This document shows, piece by piece, positions 18,666 through 32,936 of a stretch of DNA of 55,425 nt (position 1 is the stretch's first letter; each line of letters opens with the position of its first letter). The translations under genes were made by a program, and so were the position numbers. Source of the stretch: an uncultured Pseudomonadota bacterium. Its GTDB lineage: Bacteria; Myxococcota_A; UBA796; SXON01. Location: assembly GCA_903844155.1 (NCBI GenBank), contig CAIMSU010000147.1, forward strand, positions 1-55,425, in the 5' to 3' direction. Under the pieces are notes generated by a model. It saw only the letters and a list, made by a program, of their open reading frames with translations. It ran no database searches and was not told the origin of the DNA.

Positions 18666-20492
18666 ATGATCCTCGTGCTCCTCGCACCGGTACTCGGCGC
18701 CGCCAACGCCGCGACCATCCACGTCGCCCAGGACGGCTCAGGCGATGCGACCACGATCATGGCGGGCCTCGCACTGTCCCGTTCCGGCGACACCGTGGAG
18801 GTCACCGGCGGCACGTACACCGAGGACGTCACGCTGCCTGCGTGGCCGGTGACGCTCGAAGGCGAGGCGGGGTCGGCGGGGACCACGATTATCGGCGTTG
18901 ACTATGGATCGACGGTCCGCGTGGCGAACCCGGAGGCGGCGGGGACGGTGATCCGCGGTTTTACGATCACCGGCGGGGACTGTAGCGGGTGCTCGTTGCC
19001 GGAGTCGGGCGGGGCGGGCGTGGGAGTGTTCGGCGTGGCGGTGGAGCTCGAGGACCTCGTGGTGACCGGGAATGTTGGCGGGGCGGCGGTCACGCTTGCG
19101 TACGCGGGCGGTTCCACGCTCATCAACTCGTCCGTCGACGAGAACGATGCGGGGATCGAGGTGCACCAGGATGACGACGAGACGGTCACGCTCACCGACG
19201 TGGACGTCGAGCGTAGCGCCGGGGACGGCCTCACGATCATAGGAGGCAGGGTCAATGGAACGTCCGTCACGTCGAGCAACAACGACGAAGACGGCATCAA
19301 CGCGTCCGAAGGCGAGCTGGCTTGCGACCATTGCGAGGCCTCGGAGAACGGGTTCTTCGGCATCGACACGAAGGAGGCTTGGTTCACGGACTTGACGGTG
19401 ACCCACAACGCGCACGAGGGAATCGTCGGAGGCGACGTGGTGATCAGCGGCGGGTTGATCTCCGAGAACTTTGATCGCTGGAGCGGGTACGGCGCGGCCG
19501 TGACCGGGGACGACGTTCGCGCGTGGGGTGTGACCTTCGCCGATAATGTGGGCGAGCGGCTGGGGGGAGCGGTCGACGCGAAGACCGGCGAGCTCGACGG
19601 GGACCTGTTTGTCGGCAACCAGGCCCTCGAAGGGGCCGCCGTCTACATGGCTGGGGACGGGTCCATGAGGATCGTCAACACGGTGTTCGAGGGAAACATC
19701 GGCTCCGATGCGGCCGTTCTCTCAATGCCCTATGGCGGAGACGTCACCGTGACCAACGTGACGGCGCTCCAGAATGCGAGCGGCGAGGTGGACTTCGATG
19801 TTGGAGGGGGAGGCGTCCTTCGTGTTGACAATACCATCGTCGCGGACTCCGCGGGTGCCGCGTTCTCGATCAACATGACTTGCACCCTCACCCTCACCTA
19901 CAGCGATCTCCACAACAACGCCGGTGGCTCCGGCCTCACGACCGACCCGACGGGCACCTCTGGAAACATCGCCATCGACCCCGTCTTCGTCGACTACGCC
20001 GCCGATGGCGCGTACACCGACGACCTGCACCTCGCCGCCGGCTCACCCCTCATCGACGCCGGCGACCCCGCGATCCTCGACCTCGACGGCACGCGCAGCG
20101 ACATCGGCGCCTACGGCGGCCCCGGCGACGTTGTCTGGGTTGACGCGGACGGCGACGGCTGGTCCGCGATCTCCGGCGACTGCGACGACGCCAACGCCGC
20201 CGTAAACCCAGCCGCCGTCGAGCTTTGCGACGGTGTCGACAACAACTGCGACGGGGTCGTCGACGAGGGCTGCGCGACCGACAGCGGCGTCGACTCGGCC
20301 ATCGACAGCGCCCCCGCGGACACCGCCGTTGACTCCGCGAGCGACACGGCGGGCGACACGCTCGGAGATCCGCGGCGCCCCGGGAAAAAATCCGGATGCA
20401 CCGGCTGTTCGACGGCCCGAACCTCTCCGCCGTTCGCGCTTTTCGCCGGCCTCGCGCTCCTCGCACAGCGGCGCAGGCGACCGGCCGGTTGA
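18666..20492 (+). CDS. Secreted parallel beta-helix protein with MopE-type motif and MYXO-CTERM-like tail
   Basis: 608 residues. A signal peptide (ILVLLAPVLGAANA) is followed by right-handed beta-helix repeats to about residue 480, opening with TIHVAQDGSGDATTIMAGL as in pectate-lyase-like coils. One MopE-like motif follows, DADGDGWSAISGDCDDANA with ELCDGVDNNCDGVVDEGC, then an Asp/Ser/Thr/Ala linker and a sorting-like tail: GCTGCS, a hydrophobic helix and an Arg-rich end. Such proteins are usually surface displayed. The Asp-rich motif is predicted to bind metal. Enzymatic activity is not evident from the beta-helix. Confidence 0.85.
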   Translation: MILVLLAPVLGAANAATIHVAQDGSGDATTIMAGLALSRSGDTVEVTGGTYTEDVTLPAWPVTLEGEAGSAGTTIIGVDYGSTVRVANPEAAGTVIRGFTITGGDCSGCSLPESGGAGVGVFGVAVELEDLVVTGNVGGAAVTLAYAGGSTLINSSVDENDAGIEVHQDDDETVTLTDVDVERSAGDGLTIIGGRVNGTSVTSSNNDEDGINASEGELACDHCEASENGFFGIDTKEAWFTDLTVTHNAHEGIVGGDVVISGGLISENFDRWSGYGAAVTGDDVRAWGVTFADNVGERLGGAVDAKTGELDGDLFVGNQALEGAAVYMAGDGSMRIVNTVFEGNIGSDAAVLSMPYGGDVTVTNVTALQNASGEVDFDVGGGGVLRVDNTIVADSAGAAFSINMTCTLTLTYSDLHNNAGGSGLTTDPTGTSGNIAIDPVFVDYAADGAYTDDLHLAAGSPLIDAGDPAILDLDGTRSDIGAYGGPGDVVWVDADGDGWSAISGDCDDANAAVNPAAVELCDGVDNNCDGVVDEGCATDSGVDSAIDSAPADTAVDSASDTAGDTLGDPRRPGKKSGCTGCSTARTSPPFALFAGLALLAQRRRRPAG

Positions 20493-23228: not shown

Positions 23229-24236
23229 GTGGCGACGCGTGCGCCGATCGACGTCCGCGCGAGCGTGGAGCGCGTGCGAAAGGGCGGAATTCCCCTGCGC
23301 GCGGTGGAACGGCTGCAGGATGAGATGGGCGCTGCCGGGAGCGGCCCTAGGCTTTTCACCAGCGATTTGTCGGTCAACGAGTTCCTGCTCTCGCGCGACG
23401 CGCAGTGCGAGCCGATCTCGCAGGTGATGGGATCGAGCATCTACCACGTCGGGCAGATCCCCGATTACAAAGGCAAGACGTCGGAGATCACCATCATCTC
23501 GGAGGGCCACCGAAACTCGCGAAGGGCGGCGCTGCACCGATTGTACGAGGAGGCCGCGTTGGTTGGGGCGGACGCGGTGATCGGGGTGCGGCTGCGTGAC
23601 CGGATGATCACGATGGGCTCGCGCGGAAAAGGTGGCGATGATGGAGGGGAGATCCTCGAATTCACAGTCGTCGGCACGGCCGTTCGGGCACCCTGGATCA
23701 CCCACCGGCCGGGCGAGCCGGTCATCACGGACCTGACCGGGCAGGACCTCTGGGCGCTGCATCGCGACGGTTTTGAGCCCTGCGGCTTCCTTTTTGAGTT
23801 CTGCCGCTACCACGTCTGGCACGTGACCAAGAACACCAACTTCACGACCGGGGAGCTGGACGAGGCGAGTGACGCCGCCGTCTCCGCGCGTGACATCGCC
23901 GCGAAGAAGCTCTTGAAGCAGGCGTCCGACTGCGGCGCCGAGTTCGTCGTCGGCAGCGACATGAAGCTGACGATGCGCGAGGTGCCCTGCGGCTACGGCG
24001 GCTGCCAGCTCGACGACCTCGACGTGGACGTGAGCTGGTTCGGCACCGGTGTCCGTCGCATCCCCGGCGCCGTTCCCCACGAACACCACATGCCCCCGTT
24101 GATCCTCTCGATGATGCCGCTCGGCCGGCGAAAGGGCGAGCAGATCGACGCCGAGTCGGACGAGGATGACGTGAAGGTCGCCGCCGAGGAGGCCGAAGAA
24201 GCGGCCCTCGAAGCCGACGAAGCGGCAAGCGAATGA
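23229..24236 (+). CDS. Double YbjQ-like domain protein 2, divergent second domain
   Basis: 335 residues from GTG directly after the preceding stop. Unit 1 has RLFTSDLSVNEFLLSRDAQ, QVMGSSIYHVGQI and EFTVVGTAVRAPW. Unit 2 is diverged: ITDLTGQDLWALHRDGFEP, GFLFEFCRYHVWHVTKN, then a Cys-containing insert (EVPCGYGGCQLDDLD) before WFGTGVRRI. An acidic Ala/Glu-rich tail of about 35 residues ends the protein. The changes suggest this member has a distinct role in a hetero-oligomer. It is coupled by ATGA to the next gene. Confidence 0.8.
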   Translation: MATRAPIDVRASVERVRKGGIPLRAVERLQDEMGAAGSGPRLFTSDLSVNEFLLSRDAQCEPISQVMGSSIYHVGQIPDYKGKTSEITIISEGHRNSRRAALHRLYEEAALVGADAVIGVRLRDRMITMGSRGKGGDDGGEILEFTVVGTAVRAPWITHRPGEPVITDLTGQDLWALHRDGFEPCGFLFEFCRYHVWHVTKNTNFTTGELDEASDAAVSARDIAAKKLLKQASDCGAEFVVGSDMKLTMREVPCGYGGCQLDDLDVDVSWFGTGVRRIPGAVPHEHHMPPLILSMMPLGRRKGEQIDAESDEDDVKVAAEEAEEAALEADEAASE

Positions 24237-25333
24237 GCAGGAACGACCCCGGTTCAGGCGTCGCCAGCCTCCCCACCCACGCGCGTGAGCGCCTCGCGGA
24301 CATGCGCGAGCGGAAGCTCTTCACCAGCGACCTCTCGATCTCCGAATTCCTCCTCGTCCGCGAAGCCGGTTTTGACCCCGTCGGGCTCGTGATGGGAACG
24401 TCGATCTACCAGGTCGCACCGAACATCCCGAGCCTCGGCAAGCAGGAGCCGGGCCGCGAGATCGTCGAGACGACGAAGGCGCTCAACCACGCGCGCCAGT
24501 TGGCCATGAACCGGATGGAGCAGGAGGCCGAGGAGCTTGGCGCGGACGGCATCGTCGGCGTGCGGCTGACCGTCAACCTCGCGACCAACCCCCAGCGGGT
24601 CGAGTGGCAGCAGTACCGGTGCTGGTGCAAGTGGGCGAAGCAGATCGGCTTCCGTCGCCCGGTAACGGTCGTCGCAGGCGGCTATTTTCAGGGTTGGCAG
24701 CAGGTCGCCAACACCCAGTGGCAACAGTACGGCAAGCAGCAGGGTTGGGTGCAGACGCCCATCCCGCCGTGGAGCCAGCCGCAGGGGAGTGCCAGCTACG
24801 CGTTGGGGCAGAACACCGCAGAGTTCATCGCCATCGGCACCGCAGTTCGCCACCGCGAAGGCGAACATTACCGGAACAAGCACGGGATGCCGTTCCAGTC
24901 GGACTTGTCCGGGCAGGACTTCTGGATGCTGATCCGCGCCGGGTTCCGGCCGGTCGGGTTCTGCATGGGCAACTGTGTGTACTATGTCGGGCCGCAGATG
25001 CTGAAGGTCGCGGACGGGCAGAGCTGCGAGCTTCCCGCGTACACACACGCGTTGTACGACGCCCGCGAGTTGGCTATCGAGCGCCTGCAAGACGAAGCCG
25101 AGGAGCTCGACGCTACCGGCATCGTCGGCGTCACCGTTGCGGAGCAGCAGCACTCGTGGCGGACAACGCCGTGGAACGTCGGAAACGCGGCGTTGCAGAC
25201 GGGCGAGGTGATCGAGCTGTTCGTCATCGGAACGGCGGTGGTGCCGACCGAGAAGGCGGGCGACCTGGATCGTCCGCACCTCGTACTCTCGGCGAACGAC
25301 GTGGTGAAGGTAAACGTAGGGGGTGAGGAATGA
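24233..25333 (+). CDS. Double YbjQ-like domain protein 3, with a Trp/Gln-rich insert
   Basis: 366 residues. Unit 1 carries KLFTSDLSISEFLLVREAGF, GLVMGTSIYQVA and ELGADGIVGVRLTV, then an insert of about 70 residues rich in Trp, Gln and Gly (QGWQQVANTQWQQYGKQQGW) before EFIAIGTAVRHR. Unit 2 has FQSDLSGQDFWMLIRAGFRP, GFCMGNCVYYVGP and ELFVIGTAVVPTE. The insert sits at the same loop where the other members have short turns. Both ends overlap neighbours by ATGA. Confidence 0.8.
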   Translation: MSRNDPGSGVASLPTHARERLADMRERKLFTSDLSISEFLLVREAGFDPVGLVMGTSIYQVAPNIPSLGKQEPGREIVETTKALNHARQLAMNRMEQEAEELGADGIVGVRLTVNLATNPQRVEWQQYRCWCKWAKQIGFRRPVTVVAGGYFQGWQQVANTQWQQYGKQQGWVQTPIPPWSQPQGSASYALGQNTAEFIAIGTAVRHREGEHYRNKHGMPFQSDLSGQDFWMLIRAGFRPVGFCMGNCVYYVGPQMLKVADGQSCELPAYTHALYDARELAIERLQDEAEELDATGIVGVTVAEQQHSWRTTPWNVGNAALQTGEVIELFVIGTAVVPTEKAGDLDRPHLVLSANDVVKVNVGGEE

Positions 25334-26142
25334 GCGGGCCTGCACTCAGTGAGCTCTCGGTCACCGAGTTCGTCGCCCTCGCGCGCGTGGGCTTCGTGCC
25401 GCGCGGGCTCGTCATCGGATCGTGCGTGTTCTCGGCGGGCACCCAGTACGATTGGACGGTGCAGACGCACGAGGTCGACGCGCTCTCCAACGCCATGCGC
25501 ACCGTGCGCCGACTCGCGGTCGAGCGCATGCGCAAACAGGCCGCCGGTCTGCACGCAGACGGCATCGTAGACGTGCGGCTGGAGGTCGAGCACCACGTCT
25601 GGCGCGGCGCCCGGCAGGTCGCGAAGTGCCTCGCCGTCGGCACGGCCATCGCTTTTGACGCCAGCTACGCCCCCGCCACGCTGAAGCACGCCCCAAGCTT
25701 GCGCCTCTCCAACGGCACGCCCTTCGACAGCGACCTGAGCGCGTCCGACTTCATCACGCTGCTCTCGGCCGGCTACCGGCCCGTGACCGTCGCCATGGGC
25801 AACTGTGTGTACGGCCTCGACCCGCGTGAGCAGCGCCAGTACCGTGGCAAGGACGCCGAAATCACCAGCTATACCCAGGCGTTTTTCGACGCGCGCGAGC
25901 TGGCGATGGAGCGTCTGCAGCACGACCTCTTCAAGTCCTTCCCGAAGGGCACGCCCGATTCGCCCGCCGGCATCGTCGGCATGACCGTGGAGGAGGAGAC
26001 ATACGGCGGCGGTGGCGCGTCCGGGCCGCCTATCGTCGAGTTCACCGCCCTCGGTACCGCAGTCGCCGCGTTGAAGGCGGATGATCCGCGGAGAGGCGCT
26101 GGGCCGCCGAAGCCGGCGCTCGTGGTCTCGCTGGACCGGTAG
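25330..26142 (+). CDS. Double YbjQ-like domain protein 4, last gene of the operon
   Basis: 270 residues. The first unit lacks the LFTSD header and starts at LSVTEFVALARVGFVPRGLV, with IGSCVFSAG and CLAVGTAI. The second unit is complete: FDSDLSASDFITLLSAGYRP, VAMGNCVYGLDP, AFFDARELAMERLQHDL and EFTALGTAVAAL. It has no membrane segment. It ends 52 bases before the convergent lipoprotein gene. Confidence 0.8.
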   Translation: MSGPALSELSVTEFVALARVGFVPRGLVIGSCVFSAGTQYDWTVQTHEVDALSNAMRTVRRLAVERMRKQAAGLHADGIVDVRLEVEHHVWRGARQVAKCLAVGTAIAFDASYAPATLKHAPSLRLSNGTPFDSDLSASDFITLLSAGYRPVTVAMGNCVYGLDPREQRQYRGKDAEITSYTQAFFDARELAMERLQHDLFKSFPKGTPDSPAGIVGMTVEEETYGGGGASGPPIVEFTALGTAVAALKADDPRRGAGPPKPALVVSLDR

Positions 26143-29921: not shown

Positions 29922-30236
29922 ATGAACTGGAAGAACCTGGAGCTTCACGGTTGCGCGGCGATCAGTCGGCTCTGTGGCGAGTACGTCATCGAGGACACGA
30001 TCCGGCTGGCGGGAGCGCAGTTCCGCATCAAGGTCTTCGAGCGGGAGCACGACTTCGTCGCCTTTCCGAACATTCGTTTCCGAACGCCGAATGGCAGCAT
30101 CGATGGCACCTGTGGCCTTGGATCGACCGAGCTTGAGGCGCTTCAGGACGCGATCGCGCGGGTGGCCGGCGTCCTGGCGGCCAGGGCGCGATGGGAGGAG
30201 CAGGACCTTGAGTGGGTAGATCCTCGCGATTCTTGA
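29922..30236 (+). CDS. Small hypothetical protein
   Basis: 104 residues from the ATG at 29922, preceded by GGGGAAG at a suitable distance. It is a mixed alpha/beta, probably cytoplasmic protein with Cys at three sites (HGCAA, RLCGE, GTCGLG). It begins 13 bases after the helicase stop and is likely co-transcribed. I do not recognise a family. Confidence 0.6.
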   Translation: MNWKNLELHGCAAISRLCGEYVIEDTIRLAGAQFRIKVFEREHDFVAFPNIRFRTPNGSIDGTCGLGSTELEALQDAIARVAGVLAARARWEEQDLEWVDPRDS

Positions 30237-30338
30237 CGGCGTGGGCGAGTTGCGCCGGTGCCCGCCCGGAAGGGCTCCTCCGGGTCGGTGACTCCCCGCC
30301 CAGGTCCGCATGGGCGCGCGACCACGGGCAGACCGGCC

Positions 30339-30378
30339 TCAAAAGTCGCCCGGACCGGCGAGACCGGGGTCAAAAGTC
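30339..30378 (-). repeat. Minus-oriented pair of the 31-base repeat
   Basis: Two TCAAAAGTC cores at 30339-30347 and 30370-30378 are exactly 31 bases apart. Read on the minus strand they give CGACTTTTGA followed by a CCGGTCT-like segment, matching the plus-oriented array at 30515-30674. They fall in the 567-base gap 30237-30803, which has no supported gene. Confidence 0.6.
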
Positions 30379-30514
30379 GGCGGGGCGACGCTGGAGGGGC
30401 GGGACCGGCCGACGGCTGGGGTTCCGCGCCGAGGGACCAACGGACAAACGCCGATAGTTCGGGGACCCCGGCAGCGAGGGCGACAAAGTGGGTGCCGCCG
30501 CGCCCCGATTCACG

Positions 30515-30674
30515 CCGCCCACCGACATTTGACCCGTCTCTGCACCGTCGGGGCGACATTTGACCGGGGTTTGCACCCACCGGGTGACCGTCGACCCGAA
30601 TCTGCGCCCGGCCACCGACCTTTGACCCGCGCCTGTGCCCCCGCCACCGACCTTGGACCCGCGTCTCCGCCCCT
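30515..30674 (+). repeat. Five imperfect 31-32-base tandem repeats
   Basis: Cores GACATTT, GACATTT, GACCGTC, GACCTTT and GACCTTG start at 30524, 30555, 30586, 30617 and 30649, with spacing 31, 31, 31 and 32. Each is followed by GACCCG-like and TCTGCGCCC-like segments. Units abut with no spacer, so it is not a CRISPR. Together with the inverted pair at 30339-30378 they form an opposed arrangement with a centre near 30447. Confidence 0.65.
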
Positions 30675-30803
30675 CCACCGGTTCCTTCGGGCCGCGCTGC
30701 ATGGGCAGCGGGCCGGGGTGAGGTCCAAAGACCGTCAAGCCCCCGAGCGCGCAGGAACCCGCGCTCAGGCTACGCTGTCCAAGCTCCTGTTCCCCGGAAA
30801 TGC

Positions 30804-32936
30804 ATGCTCCTGTTGGCCCTGCTTCGCATCGCCGCCCCCGCCTCCGCCGCCGGTCTCCAGGTAGACACCGGCGAACCCGAGATCTCCAGCGCAGCCAGCG
30901 ATGCCGTCGCCGCCGGGCAGGAGGCGCTCGCGAAGGGCGACTTTGACGCGGCTGCGTCCGTTTACCACGCGATCTTCGAGGCAAACGGCGGAGCGCCCGC
31001 AGCGTTGGCCGAAGGCGTGGCGCGGTACGAGGGAGGAGACCTGCGAGCCGCGAAGACGGCGGCCGAGGCGGCGCTTGCGCTGGCGCCCACGGACGTTGGC
31101 AGCAAGAACCTGCTCGGGCTGATTGAGGTGGACGGCGGGTCGGTCGACGAGGGAATCGCCACGCTGAACGCCGCGGCTACGCTGGCAAAGGGCAACCCCG
31201 CGGCGTCCGCGCGAGTGACGCTGAACCTCGCGCTGGCCGCGCTGGATCAGGGGCGATTGGCAGACGCCCGGACCGGCTTTACCGCCGCCCAGAAAGCCGC
31301 GCAGGACCTCGGGGACGGCACGTTGGCCGGCGCCGCGGCGCAGGGGTTGATGGCGGCGGCGGGGCTGACCGGCTCGGACTCGGGCGTCGGCGCCATGCTC
31401 GGGAAGGGCGATGTCCACGGGGCGCTGGGCGAGGCGCAGAAGGAGGCGGCGACCGCGACGAACCGTCGGCAGAAGATCAGCGCGGAGCTGGACATCGCCG
31501 CGGTCGAACGTGCGGAGGGCAACCTGGACGGTTCCGTGATGCGGCTCCGGACCGCGATCGACGCGGCGCGCGAGGCGGGCATGATGCGCGAGGTGGCCGT
31601 CGGCCTCGGCAACCTTGGCCTCGCGTACACGTTGCTGGGCGAGCACCCGCTGGCAGCCGACTCCCTGCGCGCAGGCGTGAACGAGGCGTCCAAAGGGGGG
31701 TATCGGGTGGTCGAGATCGACCTTCGGTGCGAGCTCGGGTTTGTGCTCGTGACCATGAACGATCCCACCTCCGCGACGAGCGAGCAGCGCGCGGCAGGCG
31801 GATTGTTGGCGAAGATGGACTACCCGGCGGGTGTAGCCAGGCAGGCGGAGCTTGGCGGCGCCATCGCGTCGGCGAACGGCGACATCGCCACGGCCAACCA
31901 GGCGCTTGGGCAAGCCGCGGACTGGTATGTCGCACACCAGCGACCGCTCGACGCAGCGCGGGTGGAGACCCAACTTGCGGCCGCGTGGGAGCGCAGCGAC
32001 CCCACCAAGGCCAGCGGCTTCGCCACGAAGGCGGAGGGCTACTTTTCGGCGGCGCACGAGCCCCTCGGCCCCGCGCACGTCGCGCTCGCTCGCGCGCTCG
32101 CGGACGCCAATGCCGAGCGGTTGCCCGAGGCGCTTGCTGGCTTTTCGCGGGCGGCGACGTTGGGGGACGCGGCAAAGACCGGCGGCGGAACGGCGCTGGC
32201 GCGGGTCGCGCGCGAGGACGCCGCTGGGGCCCTTGTTGCGCTCGGCGAAGGTCAGGATCTCGCGAACCTCGCGGCCCAGAACGGGCTCGGCGATCTCGTC
32301 GAGCGCGCGAAGGGCATGCAGGCCGCCTTTGCACAATACGACGCCGGCCTCAAGCTCTACGACGCGAAGTCCTGGGATCCCGCGCACGCGCAATTCGTCG
32401 AGGCGCAGACGGCGTTTGAGAAGCTCTCCGAGACGGCGTACGCGGTCCGGGCCCATCGCGCCGCGGTGTGGAGCGAGTACAACGCGACCGTCACGCTCCC
32501 CGTCGCCCAGGCCGTTCCGATCTGGGCGAAGATCCTGCCAGAAGCAGGTGGGGTGGAGGACCCGGAGCTGTACACGCGCGCGTACGGGGCCGCGGCCGTC
32601 GCCGTTCACCAGTCCGGCGTCGGCGACCCCACGCTACGCCTGAACGAGTGCATCCGACGCGCGTCGTCGATGGGGATCGCGGACGTGGAGGCCCGCTGTC
32701 ACGGCGCGTTGGCCGAGCGGGCGGGTGACTTGGACGCCCGGGCAAAAGAGGCTCGCGCCGCCGAGAAGCTCATGCCCGCGGACACCGGGACCGTGTACGC
32801 GCTCTACAGCGTTGCCGTCGACGCCTACAACGCGGATCGTTCGGATCTCGCGCACGAATTGGCGTCCCTCGCGCGTCCGAACGCTGGGGCGCTCGCCGGG
32901 CAGTTGGACATCATCCTGAAGGGCACGGGGGGGTGA
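30804..32936 (+). CDS. Exported TPR-repeat protein
   Basis: 710 residues. A short signal peptide (MLLLALLRIAAPASAAG) is followed by Ala-rich helical hairpins throughout. They follow the TPR pattern, with readable examples AAGQEALAKGDFDAAASVYHA, NLALAALDQGRLADARTGFT and VGLGNLGLAYTLLGEHPLA. TPR arrays are binding scaffolds; no catalytic domain is present. It is likely periplasmic. The downstream metalloprotease starts inside its stop (GTGA), so the two are coupled and may act together. Confidence 0.82.
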   Translation: MLLLALLRIAAPASAAGLQVDTGEPEISSAASDAVAAGQEALAKGDFDAAASVYHAIFEANGGAPAALAEGVARYEGGDLRAAKTAAEAALALAPTDVGSKNLLGLIEVDGGSVDEGIATLNAAATLAKGNPAASARVTLNLALAALDQGRLADARTGFTAAQKAAQDLGDGTLAGAAAQGLMAAAGLTGSDSGVGAMLGKGDVHGALGEAQKEAATATNRRQKISAELDIAAVERAEGNLDGSVMRLRTAIDAAREAGMMREVAVGLGNLGLAYTLLGEHPLAADSLRAGVNEASKGGYRVVEIDLRCELGFVLVTMNDPTSATSEQRAAGGLLAKMDYPAGVARQAELGGAIASANGDIATANQALGQAADWYVAHQRPLDAARVETQLAAAWERSDPTKASGFATKAEGYFSAAHEPLGPAHVALARALADANAERLPEALAGFSRAATLGDAAKTGGGTALARVAREDAAGALVALGEGQDLANLAAQNGLGDLVERAKGMQAAFAQYDAGLKLYDAKSWDPAHAQFVEAQTAFEKLSETAYAVRAHRAAVWSEYNATVTLPVAQAVPIWAKILPEAGGVEDPELYTRAYGAAAVAVHQSGVGDPTLRLNECIRRASSMGIADVEARCHGALAERAGDLDARAKEARAAEKLMPADTGTVYALYSVAVDAYNADRSDLAHELASLARPNAGALAGQLDIILKGTGG

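What the first reader, a model, noticed from the sequence alone, without database searches (positions are those of the whole stretch)
30339..30674. Opposed arrays of a 31-32-base repeat in a 567-base gap
Two minus-oriented and five plus-oriented units with the same 31-32-base period face each other around a non-repeated centre. Cores are GACTTTTGA / GACATTTGAC-like. The period is near three helical turns, so a protein could bind all units on one face. This may be an iteron-like site, a regulatory hub or a small mobile repeat family. Similar units may be scattered through the genome.
Basis: seen in the sequence. Interest (0 to 1): 0.55.

Follow-up and report, generated by a model that had tools for sequence, protein, structure and literature searches.

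The report
Scattered DNA elements spaced by helix turns
The repeats are one copy of a scattered bacterial DNA element in which pairs of likely protein-binding sites flank a conserved central site, with gaps that change only by whole turns of the double helix, as if proteins fold each copy into a small loop.

Summary
In detail: 2 units on one strand and 5 on the other, period 31-32, in a 567-base gap. It is one copy of a dispersed non-coding family: 80 unit hits in the genome, 1 control hit. In 28 complete copies two units 31 bases apart face two inverted units around a conserved core. Both spacers vary only in ~10.5-base steps (49-50/60-61/70-71 and 44/54-55/64-66/76/86); 7 of 7 held-out elements agree. 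Spacer sequences are near-random between copies, units 78% identical. The core recurs in 29 of 67 genomes of the class (113 hits, 1 control), in part between inverted 31-base-period arms of other, genome-specific sequence (22 of 98 scored). In two relatives whole elements, spacers included, recur at unlinked loci. Best reading: non-autonomous mobile elements that fold into a looped protein-DNA complex, with a shared core and changing arms, still constrained when old. No target duplication, transposase or autonomous copy was found. Iterons, IS21 ends, RNA stems and slippage fit poorly.

The parts
30329..30349 (+). left arm, outer unit CAGACCGGCCTCAAAAGTCGC
30360..30380 (+). left arm, inner unit GAGACCGGGGTCAAAAGTCGG, 31 bases from the outer one
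30439..30459 (-). core AACTATCGGCGTTTGTCCGTT (read on -); 1 mismatch to the order-wide pattern
30522..30542 (-). right arm, inner unit CAGAGACGGGTCAAATGTCGG
30553..30573 (-). right arm, outer unit of the usual 2 + 2 element, CAAACCCCGGTCAAATGTCGC
30584..30604 (-). degenerate third right unit (placed by the 31-base spacing)
   Evidence: below threshold
30615..30635 (-). fourth right unit, partly degenerate
30647..30667 (-). fifth right unit, partly degenerate, spacing 32
30329..30573. the standard 2 + core + 2 element, about 245 bases (one search counts 244 from its own edge definition)

Best explanation
The window holds one copy of a dispersed, non-coding arm-core-arm element. Shown by sequence: two 31-base-spaced units on each side in opposite orientation; a conserved asymmetric core between them; both spacers limited to whole helical turns; dozens of copies in this genome; a core shared across the order with arms that differ by genome; copying of whole elements in two relatives. 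Inferred: a transposase-like protein, different for each arm type, occupies two sites per arm on one face of the helix; a protein conserved in the order binds (and probably bends) the core, so that ~250 bases fold into a compact complex in which the two arms pair. Inferred: the elements are non-autonomous mobile elements. In this genome the copies are old, yet arms, core and helical length class are still held, so selection acts on them in place or acted on every copying step.
For: 80 unit hits vs 1 control, 63 doublets vs 0. 28 of 28 centres hold the core, chosen identically in leave-one-out; score and phasing exceed 100 runs of the same procedure on shuffled centres. Vector strength at 10.5 bases 0.97 (left) and 0.96 (right), 0 of 20,000 jittered sets reach it. 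Seven held-out elements (one in this genome, six in G004, two pairs of them tandem duplicates) fall on the same grid. Other arm types in other genomes keep the 31-base period and a 10.5-base grid. Units 77.6%, core 60.4%, spacers 33.1%, flanks 31.5% identical between copies. No left-right covariation, as expected for separate protein sites. G021 K-type copies 80-88% and G007 short-type copies 75-94% identical at different loci, spacers included; at least 8 G021 contigs begin within 190 bases of a K unit, as young repeats cause.
Against: No target-site duplication in 27 A copies and no clear one by eye in K copies, whose shared sequence runs beyond the arms. No transposase between arms in the stretches I looked at. 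No empty site seen. In G013 (T type) the spacers are hardly more alike than flanks (0.36 vs 0.33) and in G008 (M type) 0.47 vs 0.42, so copying of whole elements is shown only for two types. 76 of 98 scored core hits elsewhere did not pass both arm tests, and the core also stands alone before genes. Neither binding protein is known.
Confidence: 0.5

Rival explanations
1. A resident architectural or regulatory site rather than a mobile element: host proteins bind arms and core at each locus and make a small loop that organises the chromosome or separates neighbouring genes; each copy is kept by selection where it stands.
For: Spacers near-random (0 of 378 pairs above the shuffled 99.9th percentile) while units, core and helical length class persist; no target duplication; mostly clear of called genes, whatever their direction.
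Against: Copy number and unit sequence change sharply between congeners: A units in 2 of 5 genomes of the genus. Whole elements are copied in G021 and G007. Mean spacer pair score is slightly above shuffles (4.1 vs 1.9, sd 5.8), a hint of common descent.
Confidence: 0.28
2. A mobile, regulated promoter: the core is a promoter (GATAAT-like -10 on the reverse strand), the arms are operator pairs phased to it, and copies bring transcription to new places.
For: The core also lies 34 bases before two IS91-family-like transposase genes and 45-222 bases before plausible ORF starts in G001, G002 and G003.
Against: In the 28 A copies the core points at the 5' end of the next gene in only about 11 of 27 (counted by eye); 9 copies lie between convergent genes. 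No -35 box is evident.
Confidence: 0.15
3. An iteron-type replication or partition site.
For: Directly repeated units near three helical turns; a plasmid-like stretch in Advenella carries similar repeats (L150).
Against: Dozens of intergenic loci per genome; inverted 2 + 2 design with a core; no replication gene among the four window proteins scanned.
Confidence: 0.02
4. A transcribed RNA stem or cruciform made by the two inverted arms.
For: The arms are inverted.
Against: Left and right units do not covary (Li-Ri z 1.2, Lo-Ro z -0.6); spacing follows B-DNA turns; no Rfam match up to E 1.
Confidence: 0.03
5. Local slippage in this gap.
For: The window's outer right units (third to fifth) could be a local extension of the array.
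Against: The same architecture stands at dozens of loci with negligible control counts.
Confidence: 0.01

Closest known systems
Bacterial MITEs (non-autonomous inverted-repeat elements)
   Same: Short, non-coding, inverted ends, many intergenic copies; whole elements copied in two relatives.
   Different: Two-unit arms at 31 bases, an internal core shared by different arm types, two helically quantised spacers; no target duplication or parent element found.
BIME-1 / RIB (inverted REPs around an IHF site)
   Same: Inverted arms around a central protein-site-like sequence, extragenic, dispersed (PMC2817692, passages).
   Different: Units are not palindromic REPs; no covariation of arms; 31-base doublets; RAYT not tested.
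Ends of IS21, Mu and Tn7-type transposons
   Same: Two or more direct repeats per end, inverted between ends, bound by a transposase tetramer; IS21 repeats 23 bases apart (PMC10122671, passages; Mu and Tn7 beyond that paper from recall).
   Different: 31- not 23-25-base period, other sequence, no transposase between the arms. A core between the ends recalls the Mu enhancer (recall, not tested).
Paramecium internal eliminated sequences
   Same: Old transposon-derived DNA with decayed interior, constrained ends and ~10.2-base length periodicity, explained by looping in an excision complex (PMC3464196, passages).
   Different: Eukaryotic, removed in development, mostly under 150 bases, no internal core; excision was not tested here.

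Membership tests
MITE | short, non-coding, multicopy, inverted ends | tested here: met
   28 complete copies, 233-286 bases, inverted arms
MITE | target-site duplication | tested here: inconclusive
   none in 27 A copies, but these are old; K copies show none by eye, and their outer boundary is unclear
MITE | autonomous parent with the same ends | tested here: inconclusive
   none among 9 rve loci, 21 IS21-model loci and 4 single-arm G021 stretches; other transposase families were not searched
IS21 ends | IS21-type terminal repeats of the same sequence and period in these genomes | tested here: not met
   IS21 loci with clear repeats show 23-25-base periods and other sequences (L281, L282, L284, L285; L287 weak, 25 and 32); a G021 K element merely lies beside a truncated istA
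BIME / REP | palindromic REP units, arms able to pair | tested here: not met
   no covariation between arms
BIME / REP | RAYT transposase in the genome | not tested
   no search made
BIME-1 / RIB | IHF binding between the arms | not testable with these tools
   core has no obvious E. coli IHF consensus (recalled consensus, by eye)
Iteron origin | single locus beside an initiator gene | tested here: not met
   dozens of loci; no initiator among the four window proteins scanned
Known RNA family | Rfam match | tested here: not met
   0 matches up to E 1 in window 30000-31000

The most novel reading that the evidence does not exclude
A new class of bacterial DNA element in which a core recognised across a whole order is combined with interchangeable, fast-diversifying pairs of arms, with geometry locked to the helical repeat on both sides of the core; old copies are held in place as looped protein-DNA complexes, a bacterial counterpart of the helically quantised Paramecium IESs.
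Probability: 0.35. Interest if true: 0.88.

Novelty: new variant of a known kind. Interest (0 to 1): 0.73.

Why it matters
Evolution appears to have run a helical-twist experiment: some thirty copies whose two spacers drifted freely in sequence but changed in length only by whole helical turns. That is sequence-only evidence for very tight DNA folding (spacers of roughly 45-90 bases) in bacteria. A shared core with diversifying arms separates a common host step from a changing element-specific step, so each can be tested. If the arm proteins are transposases, this is a natural series on how end specificity drifts; if not, it points to an unknown chromosome-organising system.

Tried and rejected
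IS21 or other rve transposons as parents: the 9 PF00665 loci in G000 hold no arm pair (one isolated one-mismatch unit in L030), and the 21 IS21-model loci in nine genomes carry other repeats (two threshold-level 31-base self-matches at G000 C155, L284 and L296, look coding). The 31-base doublet in L033 first looked like a transposon end but reads as one arm of a second arm type beside a cyaY-like gene (gene name by eye).

Synteny and empty site: the helicase gene upstream of the window copy is found in 20 of 22 family genomes, but the region after it is not alike in G002 and G003, and in G004 only 472 bases remain to the contig end. A comparison of flank proteins gave a few shared neighbours between G000 and other genomes' element loci (best 61% identity, L009 with L072 and L017 with L054); I did not check whether these are orthologous positions.

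RNA hairpin or cruciform: no covariation, no Rfam match.

Core as a general promoter motif: only 3 hits with at most 1 mismatch in G000; many weaker hits outside elements look coding or unrelated by eye.

Fixed-geometry identities in relatives, units / spacers / flanks: K 0.65/0.59/0.33, M 0.70/0.47/0.42, T 0.57/0.36/0.33. K includes an out-of-register row (L180), so its unit value is too low. I lean on the A figures only.

Rows left out: C296 holds both arms but was missed when I built the set of 28; it was used afterwards as a held-out element. Single-arm loci (C25, C93, C209, C252, C332, C344 at 418, C351, C375, one unit at C55) are not in the geometry counts. C52, C122 and C137 were pattern hits without an element.

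Genome-contig scan: 3 hits. Prevotella is probably chance; Advenella looks like plasmid iterons (by eye); the third is G004's own contig.

Papers: searches gave listings with no description of such an element; PMC3464196, PMC10122671 and PMC2817692 were seen as passages. The library holds only openly licensed papers.

Full report
Observation. The 567-base gap 30237-30803 holds two units reading on + and five reading on - of CWGACNNGGGTCAAAWGTCGC at 31-32-base spacing; the outer three on the right are degenerate. The pattern exceeds chance in the window. In the genome, GACCGGGGTCAAAAGTCGC with up to 3 mismatches gives 80 hits and the reversed control 1; the 31-base doublet gives 63 hits and its control 0.

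A dispersed element. I fetched the loci behind these hits and scanned 36 stretches (35 loci and the window) with a unit model. 27 complete elements have two units exactly 31 apart, then two inverted units exactly 31 apart; C84 makes 28. C296 was overlooked and later used as a held-out case. Single-arm loci were left out (listed under Tried and rejected). By eye, one and the same interspersed repeat abuts the single arms at C25 and C351 and the second-type arms at C203 and C327. The 28 elements measure 233-286 bases. By my own codon-bias gene calls (not a standard gene finder), 9 stand between convergent genes, 10 between same-direction genes, 4 between divergent genes, 4 have one side unknown and 1 (C286) lies inside a called gene. 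C293 overlaps a called gene by 113 bases, and C343, C125 and C319 overlap by at most 35; the rest are clear.

Core and phasing. Each of the 28 centres contains one asymmetric motif, about AATTATCGGCGTTYGWCCGTT, in either orientation. Leave-one-out selection returns the same site in 28 of 28 (scores 8.8 to 27.7). The median score of the fitted model is 25.3, against at most 12.9 in 100 runs of the same procedure on shuffled centres. From the left inner unit to the core model the distances are 49-50 (3 copies), 60-61 (13) and 70-71 (12); from the model to the right inner unit 44 (1), 54-55 (11), 64-66 (12), 76 (3) and 86 (1). Best periods are 10.65 and 10.55 bases; vector strengths at 10.5 are 0.97 and 0.96; 0 of 20,000 sets jittered by up to 5 bases reach the observed values. 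In shuffled centres the left value averages 0.17, largest 0.51. The distance between inner units in 27 elements shows the same grid without any use of the core (149, 159-160, 169-172, 180-182, 202). Seven elements not used to find the rule (C296 and six in G004; C8 and C166 there are tandem pairs, so about five independent) give core scores 13.2-20.6 and distances 59-60 or 70 and 42-43, 53-54 or 65, under a definition one base shorter on each side: all on the grid.

Constraint. Between copies units are 77.6% identical, core 60.4%, linkers within arms 40.2%, equal-length spacers 33.1%, outside flanks 31.5%. None of 378 spacer pairs exceeds the shuffled 99.9th percentile, though the mean pair score is slightly above shuffles (4.1 against 1.9, sd 5.8). 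If the copies share one ancestor, the spacers are nearly saturated and only arms, core and helical length class have been held; if they arose apart, the same parts were put together repeatedly. Either implies function. Left and right units do not covary (Li-Ri z 1.2, Lo-Ro z -0.6); neighbours within an arm agree a little more than expected (z 2.8 and 3.4). Outer units lean to GACNNGCCTC (weakly on the right), inner units to GACCGGGGTC.

Relatives. The A-type doublet occurs in 3 of 71 class genomes: G000, G004 (same genus, 11 hits) and a diverged form in G043 (other family, 2 hits). The core is far wider: 113 hits in 29 of 67 genomes, 9 of them in G000, against 1 control hit. I scored core hits in the loci fetched from that search (100 hits, 2 too short). 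Of 98, 17 passed the inverted-arm test and a 31-base test, 5 more passed the 31-base test on both sides; of the other 76, 18 passed the inverted test alone, 8 a one-sided 31-base test, 50 none (thresholds rest on 15 shuffles each and are lenient). Arms differ by genome, for example ACCTATGCCCCTTCGTTGGAGAC in G008, GGTATCCCCNNCGAATTGCGAC in G013 and GCGTAGYCRCCTCGAAAAGCA in G021. Distances cluster on a 10.5-base grid again: T type mostly 43-44 left (also 54 and 64-65) and 39 right; K type 32/63 and 27/58 in three copies, with L180 at 64 and 27; M type 62-63/93-94 and 37/68 in four copies, with L200 at 57/88 off the grid (the T pattern is loose and also gives chance matches). At five G021 loci an extra K unit lies 42 bases, four turns, beyond the arm. 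G000 itself has another arm type with the same core and period (L090, and L088 interrupted) and, by eye, a short inverted type at C228.

Mobility. The clear cases are two. In G021, K-type elements at different loci are 80-88% identical over 178-207 bases; in G007, a short type is 75-94% identical over 47-172 bases (best 60 alignments listed, from a hand-picked set of loci in seven genomes). K units number 78 in G021 with 2 control hits, and at least 8 contigs begin within 190 bases of one. G008 M-type and G013 T-type copies align at 71-77% and 66-75% over their longer alignments, but there the spacers are little better than flanks, so they resemble the A family of this window. Against mobility: no target duplication in 27 A copies, K copies share some sequence beyond the arms, no transposase between arms in the stretches seen. 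IS21 ends also have two repeats each, 23 bases apart in the studied case (PMC10122671, passages), but IS21 loci here have 23-25-base repeats of other sequence.

What the core may be. It also stands alone 45-222 bases before plausible ORF starts in G001, G002 and G003 and 34 bases before two like transposase genes in G000; one was tested and matches Zn_Tnp_IS91 (E 3.7e-16). A promoter is therefore possible. In the 28 A copies it points at the next gene's 5' end in only about 11 of 27 (by eye), so a shared host-protein site that anchors or bends the DNA is the simpler reading.

Mechanism. Shown: geometry, constraint, dispersal in two relatives. Inferred: an arm protein with two sites per arm on one face, a core protein common to the order, and folding of ~250 bases so that the arms pair. 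Precedents: Paramecium IES lengths with ~10.2-base periodicity, explained by DNA looping in an excision complex and compared by the authors with bacterial transposon-end experiments (PMC3464196, passages); BIME-1, inverted REPs around an IHF-binding sequence (PMC2817692, passages). My literature listings showed no description of this geometry.

Noticed in passing
   Followed up: partly
L150:7400-8000 (Advenella incenata contig): Tandem GCGACTTTTGAGGTACG repeats, partly 31 bases apart, beside a replication-initiator-like ORF (by eye); shares 13 bases with the right-hand arm unit.
   Followed up: partly
G000 C25, C351, C203, C327 (L027, L019, L088, L033): The same other interspersed repeat (containing ATTGGCGAGAGCAATGGCC) abuts or interrupts these elements at four loci.
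   Followed up: no
G000 C339, C341, C366 (L021, L011, L016): A further repeat of about 145 bases lies just outside the arms, 69-76% identical between copies.
   Followed up: no
L175, L212, L213 (G013): Tandem arrays carrying the core with periods of about 157, 188 and 199 bases, near multiples of 10.5.
   Followed up: partly
L298 and L299 (G000 C354, C325): IS91-like transposase genes whose shared sequence begins about 68 bases upstream of a core.
   Followed up: partly
window 18888-18899 (-): Exact AACGCCGATAAT inside an apparent coding region, without arms.
   Followed up: no
window 23229-26142: Three consecutive ORFs with recurring motifs (DLSxSEFL, MGxSIY/MGNCVY) look like tandem paralogues.
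   Followed up: no
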